Shown here: piece after piece, positions 1 to 9,748 of the stretch
Layout of the letters: every line of letters starts with the position of its first letter
Position numbering within the stretch: the stretch's first letter is position 1
Assembly: GCA_937891825.1 (NCBI GenBank)
Contig: CALAHN010000032.1
Span: 1 to 60,017, forward strand
Source of the DNA: an uncultured Alphaproteobacteria bacterium
Lineage (GTDB): Bacteria; Pseudomonadota; Alphaproteobacteria; Bin95
DNA: 60,017 nucleotides
Direction: 5' to 3'
Notes under the pieces: model-generated
What the model was told of the DNA's origin: nothing
Database searches by the model: none
The model's input: the letters and a program-made list of their open reading frames with translations, nothing else
Position numbers and translations under genes: made by a program

Positions 1-41
1 CGAAGGATCGCAACCCATTGCAAGCCTTCATGATCTTTTGA

Positions 42-230
42 TTCAGGCTCTTAGGCGATGACGGCGTCGCTGTCCGATCCGTAACCTTTGACCTGCTCGA
101 GGACCCAATTACACGCGGGCTTTCGTCCGGCCAGGAACTTTCCATCGTCCAAGGCTCGATCCGGGCCGGCGGCGAAGCCAATCAGACGTTCAAGCTGACC
201 GAGACCGGCGCGACCTTCGACAATCCTGAA
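42..230 (+). other. In-frame coding sequence upstream of the first start codon of the RTX gene
   Basis: The frame of the large RTX gene stays open back to an in-frame TGA at 39-41, yet contains no ATG or GTG before 231. The translation of this stretch looks genuinely coding, with G or C dominating third positions. Its end, roughly IVQGSIRAGGEANQTFKL, resembles the end of the second Hcp-like domain of the main protein (LVSGEVLNEAGGIERSYRL). I infer that this is the tail of another Hcp-like domain and that the gene is broken or shifted near position 39, or that sequence is missing. The other two forward frames also hit stops by position 60. Confidence 0.5.
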
Positions 231-3200
231 GTGGTCGGCAGGGATTTCAACCTCTCTGGCTTGGACATCGCCGTCGCCGATCTTGGCCAGCAGGCGTTCA
301 TGCGCGTCACGACGGCCGGCGGCGCGACCGATTGGGTCGAAATCGAAGATTTCGATTTTTCCTTCGGCCGCGACGCCAATGGCGCCGGCGCGGCCGGCCT
401 CTCGCCAATCTCCGGCAACGTCACAATCACCCGGCCAGTCGACGAAGCGTCCGCAAAGTTCGCTCAACTCATGGCGAACAACGCCGAGGCGGAAGTTCAT
501 ATCGAAATCTGGGACGAGTTCGCCGTCCGATGGGCGCCGATCGCGCACTACAAATTTGTGGACGCGACGATCGCCAGCATCCGGACCAGCGGCGAGGCCA
601 GCCAGTCTTTTGCCCAGGAAACCTTGCGCCTCGACTTTTCCGTCTACGAGGAATTCCTCGTGGACATTTCAAAACTCGAGCCAATCGGCGTCGACGCAGG
701 GCAGCCGGTTGGCGTCGGCGCCGGCATCCGGCTCGATCTTGCGGCCGATACAAAAGGCGCCTTGCCGCAGCCCGCCGGGGTTACCAGCGACGCGACCGTT
801 GATGAGCAGACCGGCGACCTCAAGCGCACGCCGATTTTCAACGACCCTCTCGTCAATTTCGGGAATGGGTCCGGCGGCTTGAAGTTGTTCTTCGAGGCGG
901 AGGGCGTGGACTCCGGAGATGGCGATGTAGCGTTCGCTTTTTCGACCTTCGATACATGGTTCGCGGTCAACAGCTTCGACTTCGACGCTGCAGGCGCCGG
1001 TCCAGCCGCATTCGCCAACGGCATCGCGATCAGCGTCGCCGACAGCCAGAACTGGGTCGGCCTCGACAAGCTGGCGATTGACGCCCTGACGCCCGGCGGC
1101 GCGAGCGGCATATTCAATGCCCGCCTGGCCGCCGCCGACCACGGACCGGAAGGCGGCAGCAGCGGCGGCGACGGTAATATCGTCTGGGAAATCACGGCGC
1201 CGAACGCACGATTGGTTTCCGGCGAAGTTCTGAATGAAGCCGGCGGCATCGAGCGCAGCTACAGGCTGGAATTCGGCGATGAATTCAGCTGGACCGTCCG
1301 CGACAATCCCACCGGGAACCGGACCGGCAGCGGCACTATAACGGCGACCTACAATTTGGCGGGCGGCACGTTCACCGGCATGGATTTCGACGACCCGCAA
1401 TTCCAGGGCTTCGACAATCCCGCCGCCTCGGGACTCATCGGCGGAGCGTGGCAGTCGAAGCTTGATACCGGGCTCGTGTTTGCGGACCCGTACCGCATGT
1501 TCATGAACGTCAACGGCGCAGCCAATCCAATCTGGAACGAGATCACCAGCTTCAACTTCGATCCGACCCAGCAGTCGAATGAACTCGTGATCAACCGGCT
1601 GCTCGACGACGAAAGCATTCAGAACCTGTTTCTCGCGGCGAGCGGCGACGCGCTGCCCCAGACATTGGAGATCGAGATTTGGGGCGGCAACGACCGGTTC
1701 CAAGGTCTGGCGGAGTATGTGTTCGAAGGCGTCCGCTACATCAACCAGGACATCGGCATCGGCACAGGCGGCGCCAATGAAAGCATCACCGCGACATTTA
1801 CCGAATTCCAGCAGGCCGTCGCCCGCTATGACGATTTTGGCGCGATCTTCCCGCTGAATACGGCCTCAAGCGGCGCCAGCTTCAATGACGAGCGCGCTTT
1901 CGCATCCGACGGCGCGCTCGATTACACGCTGTTCGGCGCGGTCGAGGACGCGAGCATCGGCGGCCAGGACCAGTTCATCAATTCCTTCAGCGCGCTCGCG
2001 AACCCAGTCCTGAATGCGGGCGCCGGCGGCGGGTCCGCGTTCCTGTTCCGGGGCGGCGACGTCGGCGATGTCTCCGCCAACCAAGCGGCGCCGCCGCCGG
2101 CCGATGAGTTCCTCTCTATCGGCGCTGCGATTAACGCGGCGTCATCTGGCGACACGATCCAGGTGCGGAACGCGGACGTCGTCGGCATCGACAACGTCTC
2201 TGTCACAAAGAACAACCTGACTTTCGATCTCGCGGCTGGGGTCGCAGGCGCCTTCAGCATGGCTGCGACGAACGGGCAGATGACGTTCACCGGCGCAGGC
2301 GACGCCTCTGTCGCCGGCCGGAGCGGCAACGACGTCATCACTGGCGGGGCGGGCGACGATGCGATCGACGGCCGCGGCGGCAATGACGCGATTAACGGCG
2401 GCGACGGCGACGATCGCCTGGTCGATGGCATTGCGGGCGACAGCCAGGGCGCGGATACGTTGAATGGCGGCGCGGGCGACGATGTGATCGTCGCCGCCTT
2501 CAGTAGCGCCGGGGACGTTTACAACGGCGGCGGCGACATCGACACCATCGATTTCAGCCTGGACGCCTCCGGCGCTACCAATGTGCTGCTCGGCGCGGCG
2601 TTCACACACTTCGGCGCTTCATTCGACAACTTTGAAAACGCCATCGGCACCCAGGGCGATGACATCATCATAGGCTCCGCCGACGCAAATATTGTCGATG
2701 GCGGCGCGGGCGCCGATCAGATTGCCGGCAATGGCGGCGCCGACGTGCTGGATGGCGGCGCAGGCGATGATAATGTCACCGGCGGCGCGGGCGACGACAT
2801 CATCTCCGACCTGGACTTTGTCGCGGGCGCAGAAGGCGCAGACTCAATCGACGCCGGCGATGACGACGACAGGGTGATCGTGGTCGGCGCGACGGCGGGC
2901 GACAGTTATGACGGCGGTCAGGGGATCGATCTCATCGACATCCGGAGCGAGCGCCAGGCCTATGACGGCGCCAACGCCATCGACCTGTCCGGCGCAAGCT
3001 TTACGGCCCACGGCGCGACGTTCGCCGGGTTCGAGAACGCCATCGGCACGATCTTCGGCGACGTGATTGTCGGCGGCGCAGCGACAAACAGCATCAATGG
3101 CGGCTCCGGCGATGACATGATCACCGGCGGCGGGGCGGCGGAGACGATCCTCGGCGGGAACGGCGACGACACGATTATCGACGGTTCCGCGAATATTGCA

Positions 3201-5771
3201 GCAGGCGTCGACACGATAGACGCAGGCGCCGGCGACGATCTTGTCCGCGTATTCTTCGCGCTCACAAATGAGGTTTTCGACGGCGGCGCGGATATCGATA
3301 CCCTCGACGTCAGCAACGAAACGGCGGCCTACACGATTGACCTCTCCGGCGTCGATGCCGAGTTCGTGCAATTCGCGACCTTCCGCAATTTCGAGAATGT
3401 CATCGGCACAGCGCTAGGCGATACGATCACGGGCTCAGCTGGCGCCAACACGATCAACGCGGGCGCCGGCGTCGACATCGTCAATGCCGGCGACGGGGAC
3501 GACATCATCATTGACGACGACGCGTCGAACAGCGGGCTGGAAACGCTGAACGGCGGCGACGGCGACGATATTTTCCGGGTGACGCCCGTCAATTCCGGCA
3601 ATTATGACGGCGGCGCGGGCAACGACACCATCGATCTATCGACCAATGTCGATGAGTATTCCGGCGCGGAAGCGATCAATCTATCGCTTGCGGCATTCGT
3701 CAACGGCTCCCGGTTCGCGGGCTTCGAGAACGCCATAGGCTCGGTCTTCGGCGACGATATCATCGGCTCCGACGGCGCCAACATCCTCGACGGGCATTTC
3801 GGCGCGGATACGATCGATGGCGGCGCGGGCGACGATATCATTACCGACCGGGACGGCGCGGCCGACGCTATCGACGGCGGCGCCGACGATGACACGATCA
3901 TCGTCCACAACGCCCAGGGCGACACATATGAGGGGGGTCAGGGCGTCGACACGCTCGACCTCTCGAACGAGAGCGCGGGCTATACGCTGGCGGACACGGT
4001 CGACCTTGCCGCCGCATTCTTCACCAAGGGCGCGGCGCAGTTCTCCGGCTTTGAGAACGTGATCGGCACCAACCAGGCCGATGTCATCGCAGGATCGGGC
4101 GTCGCCAACGCGCTGAATGGCGGCGGCGGCGCCGACATCGTCAGCGGCGGCGGCGGCGGCGATGTCCTGACCGATAGCGACGGCGCCGGCATCGACGCGC
4201 TGTTGGGCGAAGCCGGAGACGACATCATTCGCGTGTTTGCCGCGATCGCGGGCGAAACATTCGATGGCGGCGCGGGCGACACGGATACCCTCGACCTCAG
4301 CGAACATCAGACGCCGCTCGACGCCCTGACGCCGCTCGACCTGACCGGCGCCGGGTTCGCCAGCTTCACGAACTTTGAAATCGTTCTGGGCAGCGGCTTT
4401 GGCGACATCATCACGGGCGACGATAGCGGCCAGACCATTCGCGGCGCCGGCGGCAGCGACACGATCACCGGCGGCGCGGGCGACGACATCATCGAAGGCG
4501 GCGAAGGGCTCGATTTTCTGGATGGAGGCGGCGGCGGCAATACGTTGTCCTACGCGAGCCACCAATTTGACCTGACGATCGATCTCGCCACCGACATAGT
4601 TATTGCGACGGGCGATAATTTGTTCGACGTCATCCAAAACTTCCAAAGCCTGATCGGCGGCGCGGGCGACGATCAACTAGCCGGCCTCAATGGGGCAACG
4701 GTGCTGAACGGAGGGGACGGCGACGATATCCTGAACGGGCGGTTTGGCGCGGATACGATTGCCGGCGGGGACGGCGACGACACGCTGGTCTTTAACGAGG
4801 ACGCTGGCGACCGTACGAAGTTCGATGTCTGGGATGGCGGCGCCGATTCCGACACCGGCGATTTCTCCGGCTTCCATTCGGCCATTCGCATCGACCTTGG
4901 CTCGGCCAACCTGCGCGCAACCCGTGACGGGGCGGACATGAACGCAGGAACCGGGGCGCTGCGGGCCATCGTCCAGACGACCGGCGTCGAAAACTTCACC
5001 GGCACGGCGTTCGACGACGAAATGCTCGGCGATAATGCGGCGAACAGATTTTTCGGCGGCGACGGCGACGACGCGCTCTTGGGCCGAAACGGCGACGATG
5101 TGCTGATTGGCGGCGCGGGCGAAGACCGACTGACCGGCGGCAGCGGTGCGGACGTCATGACTGGCGGAGACGGCGACGACATCTATGACGTCGAGAACGT
5201 CAACGACATCGTGCAGGAAAGCGCAAATGGCGGAACGAAGGACCGCATCAATACCGTGGTCGACATCGTCAATCCGGACAATGTCGAGTTCCTGATCGCG
5301 AAGTTCGCGCCGGTCGGCCTGAACCTGACCGGGAGCAACGGCTCCGACCGGATCACGGGCGCGAACAAGATCTCCTCCGGCGATGTGATTTTGGGCCTGG
5401 GCGGCAACGATAAAATCATCGGCCTCGTCGGCAACGACGTGATCGACGGCGGCGCCGGGGCAGACCGGATCTTCGGCAATTCCGGCGATGACGTGATCAC
5501 GGGCGGCGCAGGCAACGATCTCCTCACCGGCCAGTTCGGCGTCGACCGCTTCGTGCATCGGCCGGGGGACAACAACGACCGCATCACGGACTTCAGCACC
5601 GTGCAGGACCTGTTGGACCTGACCGCCCACAACTTCGCGACCTTCGCCGCCGTTCAAGCGCTGATGACCGATGCCGCGGGCGGCGCGCTGATCGATCTCG
5701 CCGGCCCGGACTCGATCAAGCTGACGGGCGTGACGGTCGCGCAGATCGGGGCGGAAGACATTCTGATTTGA
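231..5771 (+). CDS. Giant secreted RTX calcium-binding protein with N-terminal Hcp-like domains
   Basis: Encodes about 1846 residues from the GTG at 231; an ATG at 300 is an alternative, and neither has a good ribosome binding site. Residues about 21-145 match the Hcp (type VI secretion tube) fold pattern: FMRV strand, WVEIEDFDFSF, VTITRPVDEAS, then IEIWDEF and LRLDFSVYEE. Similar blocks lie at about 216-358 and 421-535. Residues 625-690 start like a parallel beta-helix (AINAASSGDTIQV). From about 698 to 1800 there are dozens of GGxGxDxhx nonapeptides arranged in larger modules marked by FENAIG. The C-terminus (DRFVHRPGDNNDRITDF onwards, ending DILI) resembles the uncleaved type I secretion signal of RTX proteins. 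I infer export by a type I ABC transporter, which is not encoded here, and calcium-dependent folding outside the cell. No enzymatic domain is evident. It may be an adhesin or matrix protein. Confidence 0.85.
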   Translation: MVGRDFNLSGLDIAVADLGQQAFMRVTTAGGATDWVEIEDFDFSFGRDANGAGAAGLSPISGNVTITRPVDEASAKFAQLMANNAEAEVHIEIWDEFAVRWAPIAHYKFVDATIASIRTSGEASQSFAQETLRLDFSVYEEFLVDISKLEPIGVDAGQPVGVGAGIRLDLAADTKGALPQPAGVTSDATVDEQTGDLKRTPIFNDPLVNFGNGSGGLKLFFEAEGVDSGDGDVAFAFSTFDTWFAVNSFDFDAAGAGPAAFANGIAISVADSQNWVGLDKLAIDALTPGGASGIFNARLAAADHGPEGGSSGGDGNIVWEITAPNARLVSGEVLNEAGGIERSYRLEFGDEFSWTVRDNPTGNRTGSGTITATYNLAGGTFTGMDFDDPQFQGFDNPAASGLIGGAWQSKLDTGLVFADPYRMFMNVNGAANPIWNEITSFNFDPTQQSNELVINRLLDDESIQNLFLAASGDALPQTLEIEIWGGNDRFQGLAEYVFEGVRYINQDIGIGTGGANESITATFTEFQQAVARYDDFGAIFPLNTASSGASFNDERAFASDGALDYTLFGAVEDASIGGQDQFINSFSALANPVLNAGAGGGSAFLFRGGDVGDVSANQAAPPPADEFLSIGAAINAASSGDTIQVRNADVVGIDNVSVTKNNLTFDLAAGVAGAFSMAATNGQMTFTGAGDASVAGRSGNDVITGGAGDDAIDGRGGNDAINGGDGDDRLVDGIAGDSQGADTLNGGAGDDVIVAAFSSAGDVYNGGGDIDTIDFSLDASGATNVLLGAAFTHFGASFDNFENAIGTQGDDIIIGSADANIVDGGAGADQIAGNGGADVLDGGAGDDNVTGGAGDDIISDLDFVAGAEGADSIDAGDDDDRVIVVGATAGDSYDGGQGIDLIDIRSERQAYDGANAIDLSGASFTAHGATFAGFENAIGTIFGDVIVGGAATNSINGGSGDDMITGGGAAETILGGNGDDTIIDGSANIAAGVDTIDAGAGDDLVRVFFALTNEVFDGGADIDTLDVSNETAAYTIDLSGVDAEFVQFATFRNFENVIGTALGDTITGSAGANTINAGAGVDIVNAGDGDDIIIDDDASNSGLETLNGGDGDDIFRVTPVNSGNYDGGAGNDTIDLSTNVDEYSGAEAINLSLAAFVNGSRFAGFENAIGSVFGDDIIGSDGANILDGHFGADTIDGGAGDDIITDRDGAADAIDGGADDDTIIVHNAQGDTYEGGQGVDTLDLSNESAGYTLADTVDLAAAFFTKGAAQFSGFENVIGTNQADVIAGSGVANALNGGGGADIVSGGGGGDVLTDSDGAGIDALLGEAGDDIIRVFAAIAGETFDGGAGDTDTLDLSEHQTPLDALTPLDLTGAGFASFTNFEIVLGSGFGDIITGDDSGQTIRGAGGSDTITGGAGDDIIEGGEGLDFLDGGGGGNTLSYASHQFDLTIDLATDIVIATGDNLFDVIQNFQSLIGGAGDDQLAGLNGATVLNGGDGDDILNGRFGADTIAGGDGDDTLVFNEDAGDRTKFDVWDGGADSDTGDFSGFHSAIRIDLGSANLRATRDGADMNAGTGALRAIVQTTGVENFTGTAFDDEMLGDNAANRFFGGDGDDALLGRNGDDVLIGGAGEDRLTGGSGADVMTGGDGDDIYDVENVNDIVQESANGGTKDRINTVVDIVNPDNVEFLIAKFAPVGLNLTGSNGSDRITGANKISSGDVILGLGGNDKIIGLVGNDVIDGGAGADRIFGNSGDDVITGGAGNDLLTGQFGVDRFVHRPGDNNDRITDFSTVQDLLDLTAHNFATFAAVQALMTDAAGGALIDLAGPDSIKLTGVTVAQIGAEDILI

Positions 5772-5887: not shown

Positions 5888-6925
5888 ATGTTTGGAACCT
5901 TGATCCCGACCGCCCTGGTCGGCAGCTATCCGCAGCCCGAATGGCTGGTCGACAAGACGATCCTGCTGGGGAGCGGGCCGCCGCGCGTGCGCATGAAGGA
6001 AGTCTGGCGGCCGCCGGCGGCCCTGCTGGATGAGGCCCAGGACGACGCCGCCCTGACCGCGCTCCACGATCAGGAGCGCGCCGGATTGACGATTGTCGGC
6101 GACGGCGAAGTCCGGCGGGAGAGCTATTTCAACCATTTCGCCAATGCGCTCGACGGCATCGACATCGACAATCCGGGCGTCGTCCCCGGCCGCACCGGCA
6201 AGCCGACGACCGTGCCGCGGGTGGTCGGCCCGATTAGGCGGAGCACGCCCGTTCAGGTCCATGAGGTCGCGTTCATGCGGGCGCACACGGACCGGCCGAT
6301 CAAGGTGACGATCCCCGGCGCGTTCACCATGGCGAAGATGGCGCTCGATGAATATTACAAGGATCAGGAAGCCCTGATCATGGCCTATGCCGACGCCCTC
6401 AAGGCGGAAATCGCCGACATGAAGGCGGCTGGCGCGGACGTGATCCAGATCGACGAGCCGCACCTGCAGGCGCATCCGGAAGAAGCCCGCCGCTTCGGCG
6501 TCAAGGCGATCGACCATGTGCTGGGCGGCGTCCAAGGGCCGACCATCGTGCATATGTGTTTCGGCTATGCCTATGTCGTCGCCGACAAGCCTTCGGGCTA
6601 TTCCTTCCTGCCCGAGCTTGACGCATCGGCCGCGACGGCGATTTCGATCGAAGCCGCGCAGCCGAAACTCGATCCGGAAGTGCTGGCGCGCTTGCCCAGC
6701 AAGCAGATCATGTATGGCGTGCTGGACCTTGGCTCAGGTTTGGTCGAGACGCCGGATATCGTGGCGGGCAGGCTGCGGCAGGCGCTGAAGCATATCCCGG
6801 CGGATCGGCTGATCGCGGCGCCCGACTGCGGCATGAAGTACCTTGGCCGGGACGTCGCCTTCGCCAAGCTCAGGGCGCTGGCCGGCGGCGCGGCGATCGT
6901 CCGCCGGGAGATTCTCGGCGCATGA
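5888..6925 (+). CDS. MetE C-terminal-like methyltransferase
   Basis: A 345-residue protein of the UROD/MetE-like superfamily, corresponding to the C-terminal catalytic half of cobalamin-independent methionine synthase, which normally exceeds 700 residues. Visible signatures are LVGSYPQP near the N-terminus, IVGDGEVRRESY, IQIDEPHL, VHMCFG and APDCGMKYL. The His/Cys pair and the late Cys are the expected zinc ligands that activate a thiol substrate. The N-terminal folate-binding half is absent, so the methyl donor may not be methyltetrahydrofolate; short homologues are seen in catabolic settings. The stop overlaps the next start by four bases (ATGA), so the two genes are probably translated together. 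Confidence 0.88.
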   Translation: MFGTLIPTALVGSYPQPEWLVDKTILLGSGPPRVRMKEVWRPPAALLDEAQDDAALTALHDQERAGLTIVGDGEVRRESYFNHFANALDGIDIDNPGVVPGRTGKPTTVPRVVGPIRRSTPVQVHEVAFMRAHTDRPIKVTIPGAFTMAKMALDEYYKDQEALIMAYADALKAEIADMKAAGADVIQIDEPHLQAHPEEARRFGVKAIDHVLGGVQGPTIVHMCFGYAYVVADKPSGYSFLPELDASAATAISIEAAQPKLDPEVLARLPSKQIMYGVLDLGSGLVETPDIVAGRLRQALKHIPADRLIAAPDCGMKYLGRDVAFAKLRALAGGAAIVRREILGA

Positions 6926-7665
6926 CGTTGATCGCAGCCCATCGCGGCGGCGCCGATATCTGGCCCGAGAACAGCCGGACGGCGTTCCTGGGCGCCGCCG
7001 CGCTGCCGGTCGATTTCGTCGAGTTCGACGTGCATGTCTCGGCGGACGGGCGCCTCGTCGTGCATCATGACGCGACGCTGGACCGGATGACCGACCGCAA
7101 GGGCGCGATCATGGATATGGCCTGGGCCGACATCGCCCAGGCCGTCATCAAGGGTACGGCCGCAGATCGGCCGCTGCTGCTGGATGAGGTGATCGAGATT
7201 TTCCGGCCGACGGCGATCGACCTCCGCCTTGAGATCAAGCTGAACGCGCGCCTCGATCCCTATCCGGGCATCGAAGCCAAGGTTGCGGCCGCCTTGCAAG
7301 CTGCCGGCATGCTGGAGCGCACCCTGATCTCGGCCTTCTCGCTGGACGCCCTCGCCCGCTTCCGGGCCGCGGCGGAGCCGGGACGCGAGACCATCTGGCT
7401 GATCAACCCGGTCACGCTTCGGCATATCGGCGGCATCGAAAGCGCGCTCAAGCTCGCGGCGGCGTTCGGCGTGCCGGAGATCGCGCCCCGGTCGCCCGAC
7501 CTTTCCGCCGCCATGGTCGCCGCCGCCAAAGCCGCCAGCGTCCGGATCGGGGCCTATGCCGTCAACGACGCGCCGACGATCGAGCGGATGCTCGATCTCG
7601 GTCTCGTCGCGTTCACCAGCGACCGGCCCGACCTAGCGCTGGCGGCCCGGCGCGCACGGGCCTAA
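6922..7665 (+). CDS. Glycerophosphodiester phosphodiesterase
   Basis: A 247-residue GDPD-family enzyme (UgpQ-like) that hydrolyses glycerophosphodiesters to glycerol 3-phosphate and an alcohol. The TIM-barrel active site is intact: HRGG with His7, PENS, EFDVH with Glu34 and Asp36 as calcium ligands, and HHD with His49. No signal peptide is visible, so it is likely cytoplasmic. The ATG overlaps the stop of the MetE-like gene. A strong hairpin follows 37 bases after the stop and probably ends this two-gene unit. The specific diester is not predictable. Confidence 0.92.
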   Translation: MTLIAAHRGGADIWPENSRTAFLGAAALPVDFVEFDVHVSADGRLVVHHDATLDRMTDRKGAIMDMAWADIAQAVIKGTAADRPLLLDEVIEIFRPTAIDLRLEIKLNARLDPYPGIEAKVAAALQAAGMLERTLISAFSLDALARFRAAAEPGRETIWLINPVTLRHIGGIESALKLAAAFGVPEIAPRSPDLSAAMVAAAKAASVRIGAYAVNDAPTIERMLDLGLVAFTSDRPDLALAARRARA

Positions 7666-7702
7666 GCTTGGCTCAACGCCATTTTCGACACTAGATCAAA
7701 CC

Positions 7703-7728
7703 AGTCTTAGGCGGAAACGCCTAAGACT
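7703..7728 (+). terminator. Perfect 11-bp hairpin with GAAA tetraloop
   Basis: The arm AGTCTTAGGCG (7703-7713) is an exact reverse complement of 7718-7728, with the tetraloop GAAA (GNRA type). An outer pair, GATCAAA (7694-7700) and TTTGATC (7735-7741), could extend the cruciform. It sits just after the glycerophosphodiesterase gene. No clean T-tract follows, so termination is inferred from position and stem strength. Confidence 0.5.
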
Positions 7729-7735
7729 AGATAAT

Positions 7736-7795
7736 TTGATCGCTATCAATAAGATAGAGCATGGACCGCGCGTCCACTTGGACGCGCCATGCTCT
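7736..7795. repeat. Dispersed palindromic repeat, copy 1
   Basis: It consists of a small hairpin TTGAT-CGCT-ATCAA (7736-7749) followed by a larger one. The large stem pairs AGAGCATGG (7756-7764) with CCATGCTCT (7787-7795) and CGCGTCC (7769-7775) with GGACGCG (7780-7786) around an ACTT loop, with a four-base bulge on the left arm. A second, diverged copy with the same order of parts lies at 30687-30743. The layout is reminiscent of the intergenic palindromes beginning with an AGAGCATG-like arm that are common in Rhizobiales genomes; that comparison is from memory. Confidence 0.6.
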
Positions 7796-7812
7796 CTAGG
7801 GAACCAGAACCT

Positions 7813-8745
7813 ATGCAAGTGGGATTTATCGGCCTCGGCACCATGGGCGCCAGCTTCGCCAGTAACCTGCAATCCAAGGGCGGCTATAAGCTGATCGTCC
7901 ATGACATCAGCCAGCAGGCGGCCAAGCGCCACCTGGACGCCGGGGCCGAATGGGTCGAGACGCCGAAGGCGCTCGCTGAGAAATGCGATGTCGTGCTGAC
8001 CTCCCTGCCCGGTCCGCCGGAAGTGCGCGCGGTCGCCTCCGATCCCGAAACCGGGCTGCTTGCCGGACTGAAGCCGGGCTCGGTCTATTTCGATCTCTCG
8101 ACCAATTCGCCGACGGTGATCCGCGAATTGCATGCCCAGTTCGCCAAGAAGGGCGTGCATCTGCTGGACGCCCCGGTTTCGGGCGGGCCGAAGGGCGCCG
8201 CGTCAGGGCGCTGCGCCATCTGGGTCGGCGGCGATGAAGCCGTGTTCAACGCCAATCGCGCGCCGCTCGACGCCATGGGCGACGCGGTGCGCTATATCGG
8301 GCCGATCGGCGCCGGCTCGATCGCGAAGCTGGTTCACAACAGCGCCGGTTATGCCATCCAGCACGCCATCGGCGAAATCTTCGCGGTCGGCGTCAAGGCC
8401 GGAGTCGAGCCGCTCGCCCTGTTCGAGGCGATCCGCATGGGCGCCCGCGGTCGCACCCGCACCTTCGACAGCCTGGCCGACCACTACATGATCAACAGCT
8501 ACGATCCTGCCGACTTCGCCCTGAAGCTTGCGCACAAGGACGTCAGCCTCGCGGCGGAAATGGCCCGCGACATCGGCGTCCCCGCCCGGATGATCGACCT
8601 GACGCGGGCCGAGATGACCGACGCCCTCAACCGCGGCTGGGGCCACCGCGACAGCCGCGCCTTCATGCTGCTGCAGCAGGAGCGCGCCGGCATCCTGGTC
8701 GATGTCGACAAGGACAAGGTCGAAGCCGCCTTGAAGGCCGACTGA
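7813..8745 (+). CDS. NAD(P)-dependent 3-hydroxyisobutyrate dehydrogenase-like oxidoreductase
   Basis: A 310-residue beta-hydroxyacid dehydrogenase. The N-terminal Rossmann motif is GFIGLGTMG, the substrate-binding signature DAPVSGGPKGA follows at about residue 118, and GSIAKLVHN carries the expected catalytic lysine. The all-alpha C-terminal domain is complete. An in-frame ATG at 7789 lies inside the palindromic repeat, so I prefer the ATG at 7813, which gives the canonical start and has AGGGA upstream. Family members reduce tartronate semialdehyde or oxidise 3-hydroxyisobutyrate and related acids. The substrate here is unknown and may relate to the downstream catabolic genes. Confidence 0.9.
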   Translation: MQVGFIGLGTMGASFASNLQSKGGYKLIVHDISQQAAKRHLDAGAEWVETPKALAEKCDVVLTSLPGPPEVRAVASDPETGLLAGLKPGSVYFDLSTNSPTVIRELHAQFAKKGVHLLDAPVSGGPKGAASGRCAIWVGGDEAVFNANRAPLDAMGDAVRYIGPIGAGSIAKLVHNSAGYAIQHAIGEIFAVGVKAGVEPLALFEAIRMGARGRTRTFDSLADHYMINSYDPADFALKLAHKDVSLAAEMARDIGVPARMIDLTRAEMTDALNRGWGHRDSRAFMLLQQERAGILVDVDKDKVEAALKAD

Positions 8746-8782
8746 CAACAAAAAGCAGAAAACACGTTCGGGAGGGACCGTC

Positions 8783-9748
8783 ATGTCTGTCATTCTGGGT
8801 TCGGGCGAGTATCGCTATCGGGTCTGCGAAGGTTGGGGCGAGCTGCCCGATGGCTGGGAGCTGATGGATGTGGCGGCTGTCGCGGTCGATCACAAAGACC
8901 GCGTCTATGTGTTCAATCGGGGCGCCCACCCGATGATCGTGTTCGACCGCGACGGCAAATTCATCAAGTCCTGGGGCGAAGGCGTGTTCAAGCGCCCGCA
9001 CGGGCTGCATGTCGGCCCGGACGAGATGCTGTATTGCACCGACGACGGCGACCACACCGTCCGGAAATGCGATCTGGACGGCAAGGTCGTGCTGGAGATC
9101 GGCATTCCGGGCAAGCCTGCCCCGTTCATGAGCGGCGAGCCGTTTCATCGCTGCACCCATACCGCCCTCTCGCCGGATGGCCACATCTTCGTCTCCGACG
9201 GCTACGGCAACGCTCACGTCCACAAGTACGATCCGAACGGCAAGCGCGTGTTGACCTGGGGCGAGCCGGGCACGGGTCCCGGCCAGTTCAACCTGGTCCA
9301 CAATATCGTCGCTGACGACGCCGGCTTCGTTTACGTGGCCGACCGGGAGAACCATCGGGTCCAGGTCTTCAATACCGAGGGCAAATACGAAGGCCAGTGG
9401 AACAACCTGCACCGGCCCTGCGGCCTGTTCATGCCGCGCGGCAAGTGCCCCCATTGCTTCATCGGCGAGCTTGGGCCGGGCATGCCGGTCAACCGCGCCT
9501 ACAAGAACCTGGGGCCGCGGCTCTCCATCGTCGACAATGAAGGCAAGCTGCTGGCGCGGCTTGGCGGCGAGGACGGGCCGGGCCTGAACGTCGGCCAGTT
9601 CATGGCGCCGCATGGCCTCGCGGTCGACAGCCGCGGCGACATCTATGTGGGCGAGGTCTCCTATACCAACTGGCCGTCGAGCTTCGGCGACGCTGAAATG
9701 CCGCGCCCGCTTCGCTCCCTGCAGAAGCTGGAGCGGCTGGCCTCATAA
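8783..9748 (+). CDS. NHL-repeat beta-propeller protein
   Basis: A 321-residue protein made of NHL-type blades, for example VDHKDRVYVFNR, FKRPHGLHVGPD, GPGQFNLVHNIV and FVYVADRENHRVQVF. It resembles the six-bladed propeller of the peptidyl-alpha-hydroxyglycine amidating lyase family. Three cysteines near residues 213-228 (PCGLF and KCPHCF) could bind a metal but are not diagnostic. No signal peptide is seen. A clear GGGAGGG ribosome binding site precedes the ATG. It sits between a dehydrogenase and a ring-cleavage-like VOC protein, so a lyase or lactonase role in the same pathway is possible but unproven. Confidence 0.82.
   Translation: MSVILGSGEYRYRVCEGWGELPDGWELMDVAAVAVDHKDRVYVFNRGAHPMIVFDRDGKFIKSWGEGVFKRPHGLHVGPDEMLYCTDDGDHTVRKCDLDGKVVLEIGIPGKPAPFMSGEPFHRCTHTALSPDGHIFVSDGYGNAHVHKYDPNGKRVLTWGEPGTGPGQFNLVHNIVADDAGFVYVADRENHRVQVFNTEGKYEGQWNNLHRPCGLFMPRGKCPHCFIGELGPGMPVNRAYKNLGPRLSIVDNEGKLLARLGGEDGPGLNVGQFMAPHGLAVDSRGDIYVGEVSYTNWPSSFGDAEMPRPLRSLQKLERLAS

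What the first reader, a model, noticed from the sequence alone, without database searches (positions are those of the whole stretch)
42..2330. Several Hcp-like tube-protein domains fused to an RTX exoprotein
Seen: three blocks (about residues 21-145, 216-358, 421-535 from the GTG at 231) share the order of strands and key positions of the type VI secretion tube protein Hcp, with a probable fourth in the upstream in-frame remnant. They precede over 1000 residues of calcium-binding RTX repeats and a type I secretion-like C-terminus. No type VI genes are present. Inference: an Hcp-like ring-forming fold has been recruited as a building block of a calcium-dependent extracellular protein, possibly stacking outside the cell. 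Whether such fusions are already catalogued I cannot tell.
Basis: partly seen in the sequence, partly recalled or inferred. Interest (0 to 1): 0.7.

Follow-up and report, generated by a model that had tools for sequence, protein, structure and literature searches.

The report
Type VI-tube-like domains on RTX exoprotein
A large calcium-binding protein that the cell probably exports by a type I pump carries domains related to the tube protein of a different machine, the type VI secretion system, in a genome where no type VI sheath gene was found; the gene has been cut by a jumping element, so this is an unusual domain shuffle rather than a new machine.

Summary
Partly confirmed. The frame from window 42 to 5771 ends in an RTX region of over 1,000 residues. 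Block A matches Pfam Hcp over its cut-off (29.1 vs 23.5 bits). Block C is weaker by sequence, but its model matches Hcp and tail-tube structures (Z up to 12.3). Block B is only hinted at. The upstream remnant is what an IS5-type element left: bases 1-50 are its end and hold the stop at 39-41. Contig C12 holds a matching 5' part, with one Hcp-like domain and a second cut by the same element; target triplets and phase differ, so this is not one clean insertion. No VipB sheath gene was found in the genome, but a PrtD-type exporter with HlyD was. No other Hcp fusion was seen in the genomes sampled; two of those scans missed this very case. Best reading: Hcp domains recruited as modules of a type I-secreted exoprotein, in a gene now interrupted. 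Rings or tubes outside the cell are untested.

The parts
1..50 (+). right end of an IS5-type insertion sequence that cuts the gene; the in-frame stop at 39-41 lies in it
   Evidence: bases 1-50 recur at 22 other places, 21 of them at contig ends (40 of 159 candidates scored, so the list may be incomplete); 20 opposite ends by exact pattern; TNA triplet next to every end read; a diverged internal relative on C43 encodes a DDE transposase fragment
51..230 (+). tail of an upstream, probably Hcp-like domain (remnant R)
   Evidence: SIRAGGEANQTF versus block A SIRTSGEASQSF, 4 of 1,000 shuffles; no match to Hcp profiles
231..5771 (+). longest ORF with a start codon (GTG), 1846 aa; the true start was probably on the other side of the IS
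240..674 (+). block A, Hcp domain
   Evidence: PF05638 29.1 bits, cut-off 23.5; hhalign to Hcp profile 95.8%
852..1355 (+). block B, possible very divergent Hcp-like domain
   Evidence: only weak profile matches; model unusable
1461..1835 (+). block C, Hcp-fold domain
   Evidence: model from a 3-sequence alignment of 1446-1865, pLDDT 64, Z 12.3 to Hcp; D2-C 4 of 1,000 shuffles
1836..2327 (+). linker of no known family
   Evidence: no Pfam match
2328..5768 (+). RTX calcium-binding repeats and a C-terminus that looks type I-like (by eye, recalled; no model matched it)
   Evidence: PF00353 4.7e-51; 28 motifs

Best explanation
The gene encodes an acidic RTX exoprotein without cysteine in the window part. 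Shown: Hcp-family domains A (window) and D2 (contig C12) over the Pfam cut-off, D1 (C12) by an Hcp profile, C by predicted fold, an RTX region of over 1,000 residues, a PrtD/HlyD type I exporter elsewhere in the genome, no VipB, and interruption by an IS5-type element. Inferred: the protein leaves the cell unfolded through the type I exporter, led by its C-terminus, and folds in external calcium; the Hcp barrels then serve as modules of a surface-bound or matrix protein (adhesion or self-association), without any type VI machine. Inferred: C12 and the window are the two ends of one ancestral gene, or of two like genes, separated by IS insertion and later rearrangement, so this copy is probably decaying.
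For: Pfam matches over cut-off for A and D2 (31.1 bits; 25.6 bits). A profile of A, D2 and C finds single-domain Hcp genes as its best outside hits: 4 of the 8 other genomes with a match, at the same places as PF05638. A scan of genome contigs with it gave 61 pattern matches and 1 confirmed relative, an Hcp behind VipA and VipB. D1 fits an Hcp profile (41.9%; 0 of 439 scored shuffles; 0 of 1,000 against the L094 Hcp). C. RTX part. Exporter: TIGR01842 706.9 bits, cut-off 510.15, a cut-off that none of the 14 control genomes reached; HlyD next to it. No VipB, control positive in E. coli. IS. pI 4.05, no cysteine in the 1846 residues.
Against: The exporter is not linked to the gene. TolC was not searched. 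No relative with the same layout was found, so no conservation test was possible. What the Hcp modules do rests on inference alone. D1 has no Pfam match of its own and is not alike to A, D2 or C in pairwise tests (187, 341 and 199 of 1,000 shuffles). The profile of A, D2 and C recovers only 4 of the 46 other genomes in which PF05638 finds a match. The C12 and window ends carry different target triplets (TCA, TTA) and do not agree in reading phase, so that they are one gene is not proven. Block B may be something else.
Confidence: 0.6

Rival explanations
1. The Hcp domains still assemble: up to five tandem barrels (D1, D2/R, A, B, C) close into a covalent ring like the Hcp hexamer, or rings stack, on the outside of the cell, with RTX as calcium-folded anchor.
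For: Tandem copies in one chain; C fits the Hcp and tail-tube fold over model residues 13-131; tube proteins of this fold form rings (recalled; hexameric rings also in the abstract of PMC4650826).
Against: Number of domains uncertain; B unproven; C lacks 17 residues in the loop region (PMC4650826 abstract); no interface test possible with so few sequences.
Confidence: 0.12
2. The Hcp domains load the protein into a type VI tube as cargo (an 'evolved' Hcp with a C-terminal payload).
For: Toxins fused to N-terminal HCP1 domains are described (PMC3482391, passage seen); Hcp with a C-terminal payload is otherwise recalled.
Against: No VipB in the genome; TIGR03344 13.2 bits against a cut-off of 58.9; several Hcp domains in one chain; the rest is RTX repeats.
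Confidence: 0.03
3. The gene is a dead remnant: the insertion ended expression and the window ORF is only a leftover of a once-working exoprotein.
For: IS end inside the gene with a stop in frame; no clean partner side: of the 4 left ends with TTA none shows an Hcp-like ORF.
Against: 1,909 codons stay open, and third-position G+C is 0.70-0.84 in all parts of the gene against 0.846 in the next gene, so decay would be recent or expression from an inner start goes on.
Confidence: 0.25

Closest known systems
Hcp / TssD, T6SS tube protein (PF05638)
   Same: Domains A, D2 (over Pfam cut-off), D1 (profile) and C (fold) are related to it
   Different: Several copies in a long chain with RTX repeats; below the NCBIfam tube-protein cut-off; no VipB in the genome
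PF05638 proteins with a PEP-CTERM sorting signal (their existence follows from PMC8262886, section 26 read, where such genes were removed from a survey)
   Same: Hcp domain in a protein with a sorting signal, probably not a tube part (inference)
   Different: Here RTX repeats and a type I-like end instead of PEP-CTERM; several domains
RTX exoproteins secreted by PrtD/HlyD-type exporters
   Same: Nonapeptide repeats, acidic, no cysteine, exporter in the genome
   Different: N-terminal part with Hcp-family domains
T6SS effectors with an N-terminal Hcp domain (PMC3482391, passage seen; otherwise recalled)
   Same: Hcp domain at the N-terminal side of a longer protein
   Different: Multiple Hcp domains, the rest is RTX, no VipB

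Membership tests
Hcp domain family PF05638 | match over the curated cut-off | tested here: met
   A 29.1 bits, D2 31.1 bits, cut-off 23.5; no own match for B, C or D1 in those calls
Hcp domain family PF05638 | Hcp/tail-tube barrel fold | tested here: met
   block C model, best Z 12.3; the alignment held one true Hcp, so not fully independent; A, D1, D2 not modelled, B model unusable
T6SS tube protein TssD | TIGR03344 over cut-off | tested here: not met
   13.2 bits, cut-off 58.9
T6SS tube protein TssD | T6SS sheath gene VipB in the genome | tested here: not met
   0 matches, control positive in E. coli; other T6SS core genes not searched
T6SS tube protein TssD | hexameric rings that stack | not testable with these tools
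   no experiment possible; loop region 17 residues shorter in C
Type I-secreted RTX protein | GGxGxDxux repeats | tested here: met
   PF00353 170.7 bits; 28 motifs
Type I-secreted RTX protein | ABC exporter and HlyD adaptor in the genome | tested here: met
   TIGR01842 706.9 bits, HlyD beside it; TolC not searched; no linkage to the gene
Type I-secreted RTX protein | C-terminal secretion signal works | not testable with these tools
   C-terminus looks typical (by eye, recalled)
RTX haemolysin (NF033943) | curated cut-off | tested here: not met
   183.6 bits, cut-off 1000
IS5-type insertion sequence | DDE transposase, 3-base TNA target | tested here: met
   DDE_Tnp_1 78.3 bits in a diverged internal relative on C43, not in the copy at the window, whose inside is not assembled there; DUF4096 of IS4/5 18 bits, below its cut-off of 34.3; TNA at ends; TNA as an IS5-group trait is recalled

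The most novel reading that the evidence does not exclude
Tandem Hcp barrels in one exported chain close into a ring, or stack into a tube, on the cell surface in a calcium-dependent way: a type VI tube part reused as an extracellular scaffold exported by a type I system.
Probability: 0.1. Interest if true: 0.75.

Novelty: new variant of a known kind. Interest (0 to 1): 0.4.

Why it matters
Hcp is usually read as a mark of a type VI system. Hcp domains on an RTX protein in a genome without the sheath gene suggest that the domain has been moved to another secretion route, which warns against calling T6SS from Hcp alone and offers a test of whether the Hcp barrel self-assembles outside its machine.

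Tried and rejected
Block B as an equal Hcp block: rejected as unproven. Long-frame hits elsewhere: G348 (862 aa), G139 (317 aa) and G334 (275 aa) are other proteins, read by eye from their ORFs; G596 (626 aa) reads by eye as a sensor kinase. G069 was not looked at. C12 as the clean other side of the same insertion: rejected for differing triplets and phase. Other left ends with TTA (4 of 20: C54, C84, C110, C116): no Hcp-like open frame of over 60 residues runs into the element (by eye; it looked at the last 600 bases only). Right ends: in the two C43 places and the 20 fetched stretches no frame of over 60 residues that leaves the element reads like Hcp or RTX (by eye; shorter frames were not printed). 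tblastn in plasmids: no match; viral contigs: 3 pattern matches, no relative; 60 relatives: only the own genome. PDB by sequence with residues 1-256: none up to E 10. PADLOC: none up to E 0.1, so an anti-phage role was not pursued. Literature: seven word searches listed no paper that by title or start of abstract is about an Hcp-RTX fusion; listings were capped (20 of 36, 20 of 22 and 15 of 380 papers) and the library is open-access only. A first count of G+C at third codon positions in the RTX part was made out of frame and is void; one search replaces it and shows no difference worth noting.

Full report
What is in the window. The window is the whole contig C32 of a genome of 4,297,217 bases in 163 contigs, 99.97% complete. 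One frame is open from base 42 to the stop at 5769-5771 (1,909 codons; the longest ORF with a start begins at a GTG at 231). It matches two Pfam families: RTX repeats (PF00353, 170.7 bits) and Hcp (PF05638, 29.1 bits, cut-off 23.5, residues 92-200 of the frame). Between residues 705 and 1758 of the GTG numbering it holds 28 RTX motifs; self-match is strongest at lags 9 and 18; pI 4.05, no cysteine.

The start is an insertion-sequence end. Bases 1-50 recur elsewhere in the genome: 22 other places, 21 of them at contig ends (40 of 159 candidates were scored, so there may be more). The opposite end of the element was found at 20 places by exact pattern and, by similarity, at 21 places including the query itself. 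Between element and flank lies a TNA triplet in every end read. A diverged internal copy on C43 encodes a DDE transposase fragment. The stop at 39-41 belongs to the element. So the 'in-frame remnant' at 51-230 is the part of the gene left after an insertion.

The other part. On contig C12 a gene starting at an ATG runs into the opposite end of the same element. Its 283 residues match PF05638 with the second domain, D2 (31.1 bits, profile positions 8-88 of 129). Its first 115 residues, D1, have no Pfam match of their own but fit an Hcp profile along positions 1-114 (41.9%; 0 of 439 scored shuffles; 0 of 1,000 against a true Hcp); D1 is not alike to A, D2 or C pairwise. D2 ends where an Hcp domain would still lack its last third; the window's remnant R has a motif like the last third of block A (4 of 1,000 shuffles), though it matches no Hcp profile by itself. 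That is what halves of one gene would look like. Against it, the triplets differ (TCA on C12, TTA in the window) and the phases do not agree. Among the four left ends with TTA none shows an Hcp-like ORF.

How good is the Hcp homology? With a profile of 34 Hcp sequences, hhalign gives 95.8% for A, 94.8% for D2, 41.9% for D1, 3.7% for C and 0.4% for B (4.3% for a longer B piece); with 30 shuffles each, A, D2, D1 and C score above all their shuffles, the longer B slightly above, B and R not. By hmmsearch the Hcp profile alone leaves A, D1 and D2 above all scored shuffles, C at 6 of 369, B at 25 of 284 and the longer B at 6 of 205; adding A, D2, C and D1 to the profile brings B to 2 of 352 and the longer B to 0 of 252; this is a hint only. 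Pairwise, A, D1 and D2 each beat all 1,000 shuffles against the Hcp of L094; C (47) and B (33) do not. A phmmer search of the first 256 residues found no PDB chain up to E 10. AlphaFold2 of C from a three-row alignment (C, A, the L094 Hcp) gave pLDDT 64, pTM 0.65; the best solved matches are Hcp (Foldseek E 5.7e-05; VIA-align Z 12.3, rmsd 2.3, 100 aligned), with tail tubes of injection systems and phages further down. The L094 Hcp in the alignment helps this result. AlphaFold2 of B alone failed (pLDDT 39).

Check by search. A profile of A, D2 and C (A1) was run over 385 genomes of the class: 9 had a match at E <= 0.05 including the own; of the other 8, four are single-domain Hcp genes that PF05638 finds at the same places (G285 at 3.3e-6, G242, G046, G271), three are chance by reading their ORFs and one was not looked at. 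PF05638 itself matches in 47 of these 385, so A1 reaches few of them. A scan of genome contigs with A1 gave 61 pattern matches and one confirmed relative: a 164-aa Hcp (162.5 bits) behind VipA and VipB in a Hydrogenophilales genome.

Surroundings. VipB: 0 matches in the own genome, control positive in E. coli; besides Hcp only this T6SS gene was searched. Type I exporter: TIGR01842 706.9 bits over a cut-off of 510.15 on C55 with HlyD behind it; the family rings in all 14 control genomes, over the cut-off in none. A second exporter (347.8 bits, below that cut-off, with a C39 domain and HlyD) is on C118. Neither lies beside the Hcp-RTX gene; TolC was not searched. The next four genes in the window are metabolic or NHL-repeat genes, and a TauD-family gene lies upstream of the C12 part.

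Distribution. No other fusion was seen: tblastn in 60 relatives, own genome only; A1 in the 14 genomes of the order, own only; PF05638 in 385 class genomes, 47 with a match, no frame of another genome above 282 aa; PF05638 in 398 phylum genomes, 94 with a match, the listed ones up to 312 aa, weaker ones not listed; A2 in 398 phylum genomes, 65 with a match, no frame of another genome above 284 aa except one of 626 aa at E 0.003 that reads as a sensor kinase. Caution: the quick first look missed the window's own block A, so these two scans could miss a similar fusion. The class, order and phylum samples overlap in genomes. The largest protein databases could not be searched.

What it most likely does. 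RTX repeats, acidity, absence of cysteine and the exporter in the genome point to type I secretion and folding in external calcium (established for RTX proteins, recalled). The Hcp modules would then sit outside the cell. Precedent: PF05638 genes with a PEP-CTERM sorting signal were removed from a survey of T6SS Hcps (PMC8262886, section 26 read), so exported Hcp-domain proteins outside T6SS were at least suspected. Whether the modules form rings is open: C lacks 17 residues between strands 2 and 3 compared with the L094 Hcp, and in one Hcp1 an extended loop was proposed as the contact with the next ring (PMC4650826, abstract seen; the correspondence is my inference). I favour simple building modules for surface attachment or self-association, in a gene that is now interrupted.

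Verdict. Seven word searches (listings seen, three of them capped) showed no paper on an Hcp-RTX fusion. New variant of a known kind; interest 0.4, because it is a single, broken gene without relatives to test function.

Noticed in passing
window 1-50; C12:1-54; about 40 contig ends: One IS5-type element breaks the assembly at 20 left and 22 right contig ends found here; counts of left and right ends by target triplet do not balance (for example TCA 2 left, 4 right), which suggests IS-mediated rearrangements or lost pieces.
   Followed up: partly
L099:3213-3917 (C55): The PrtD-like exporter (795 aa) has a tail of roughly 230 residues rich in proline and alanine after its ATPase domain.
   Followed up: no
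window 1836-2327: The stretch before the RTX repeats reads by eye like the first coil of a beta-helix (SIGAAINAASSGDTIQV); no Pfam match.
   Followed up: no
window 5888-9745: Downstream lie a cobalamin-independent methionine-synthase-like gene, a GDPD gene, a 3-hydroxyisobutyrate-dehydrogenase-like gene and an NHL-repeat propeller gene; they look like ordinary catabolism, unrelated to the exoprotein.
   Followed up: no
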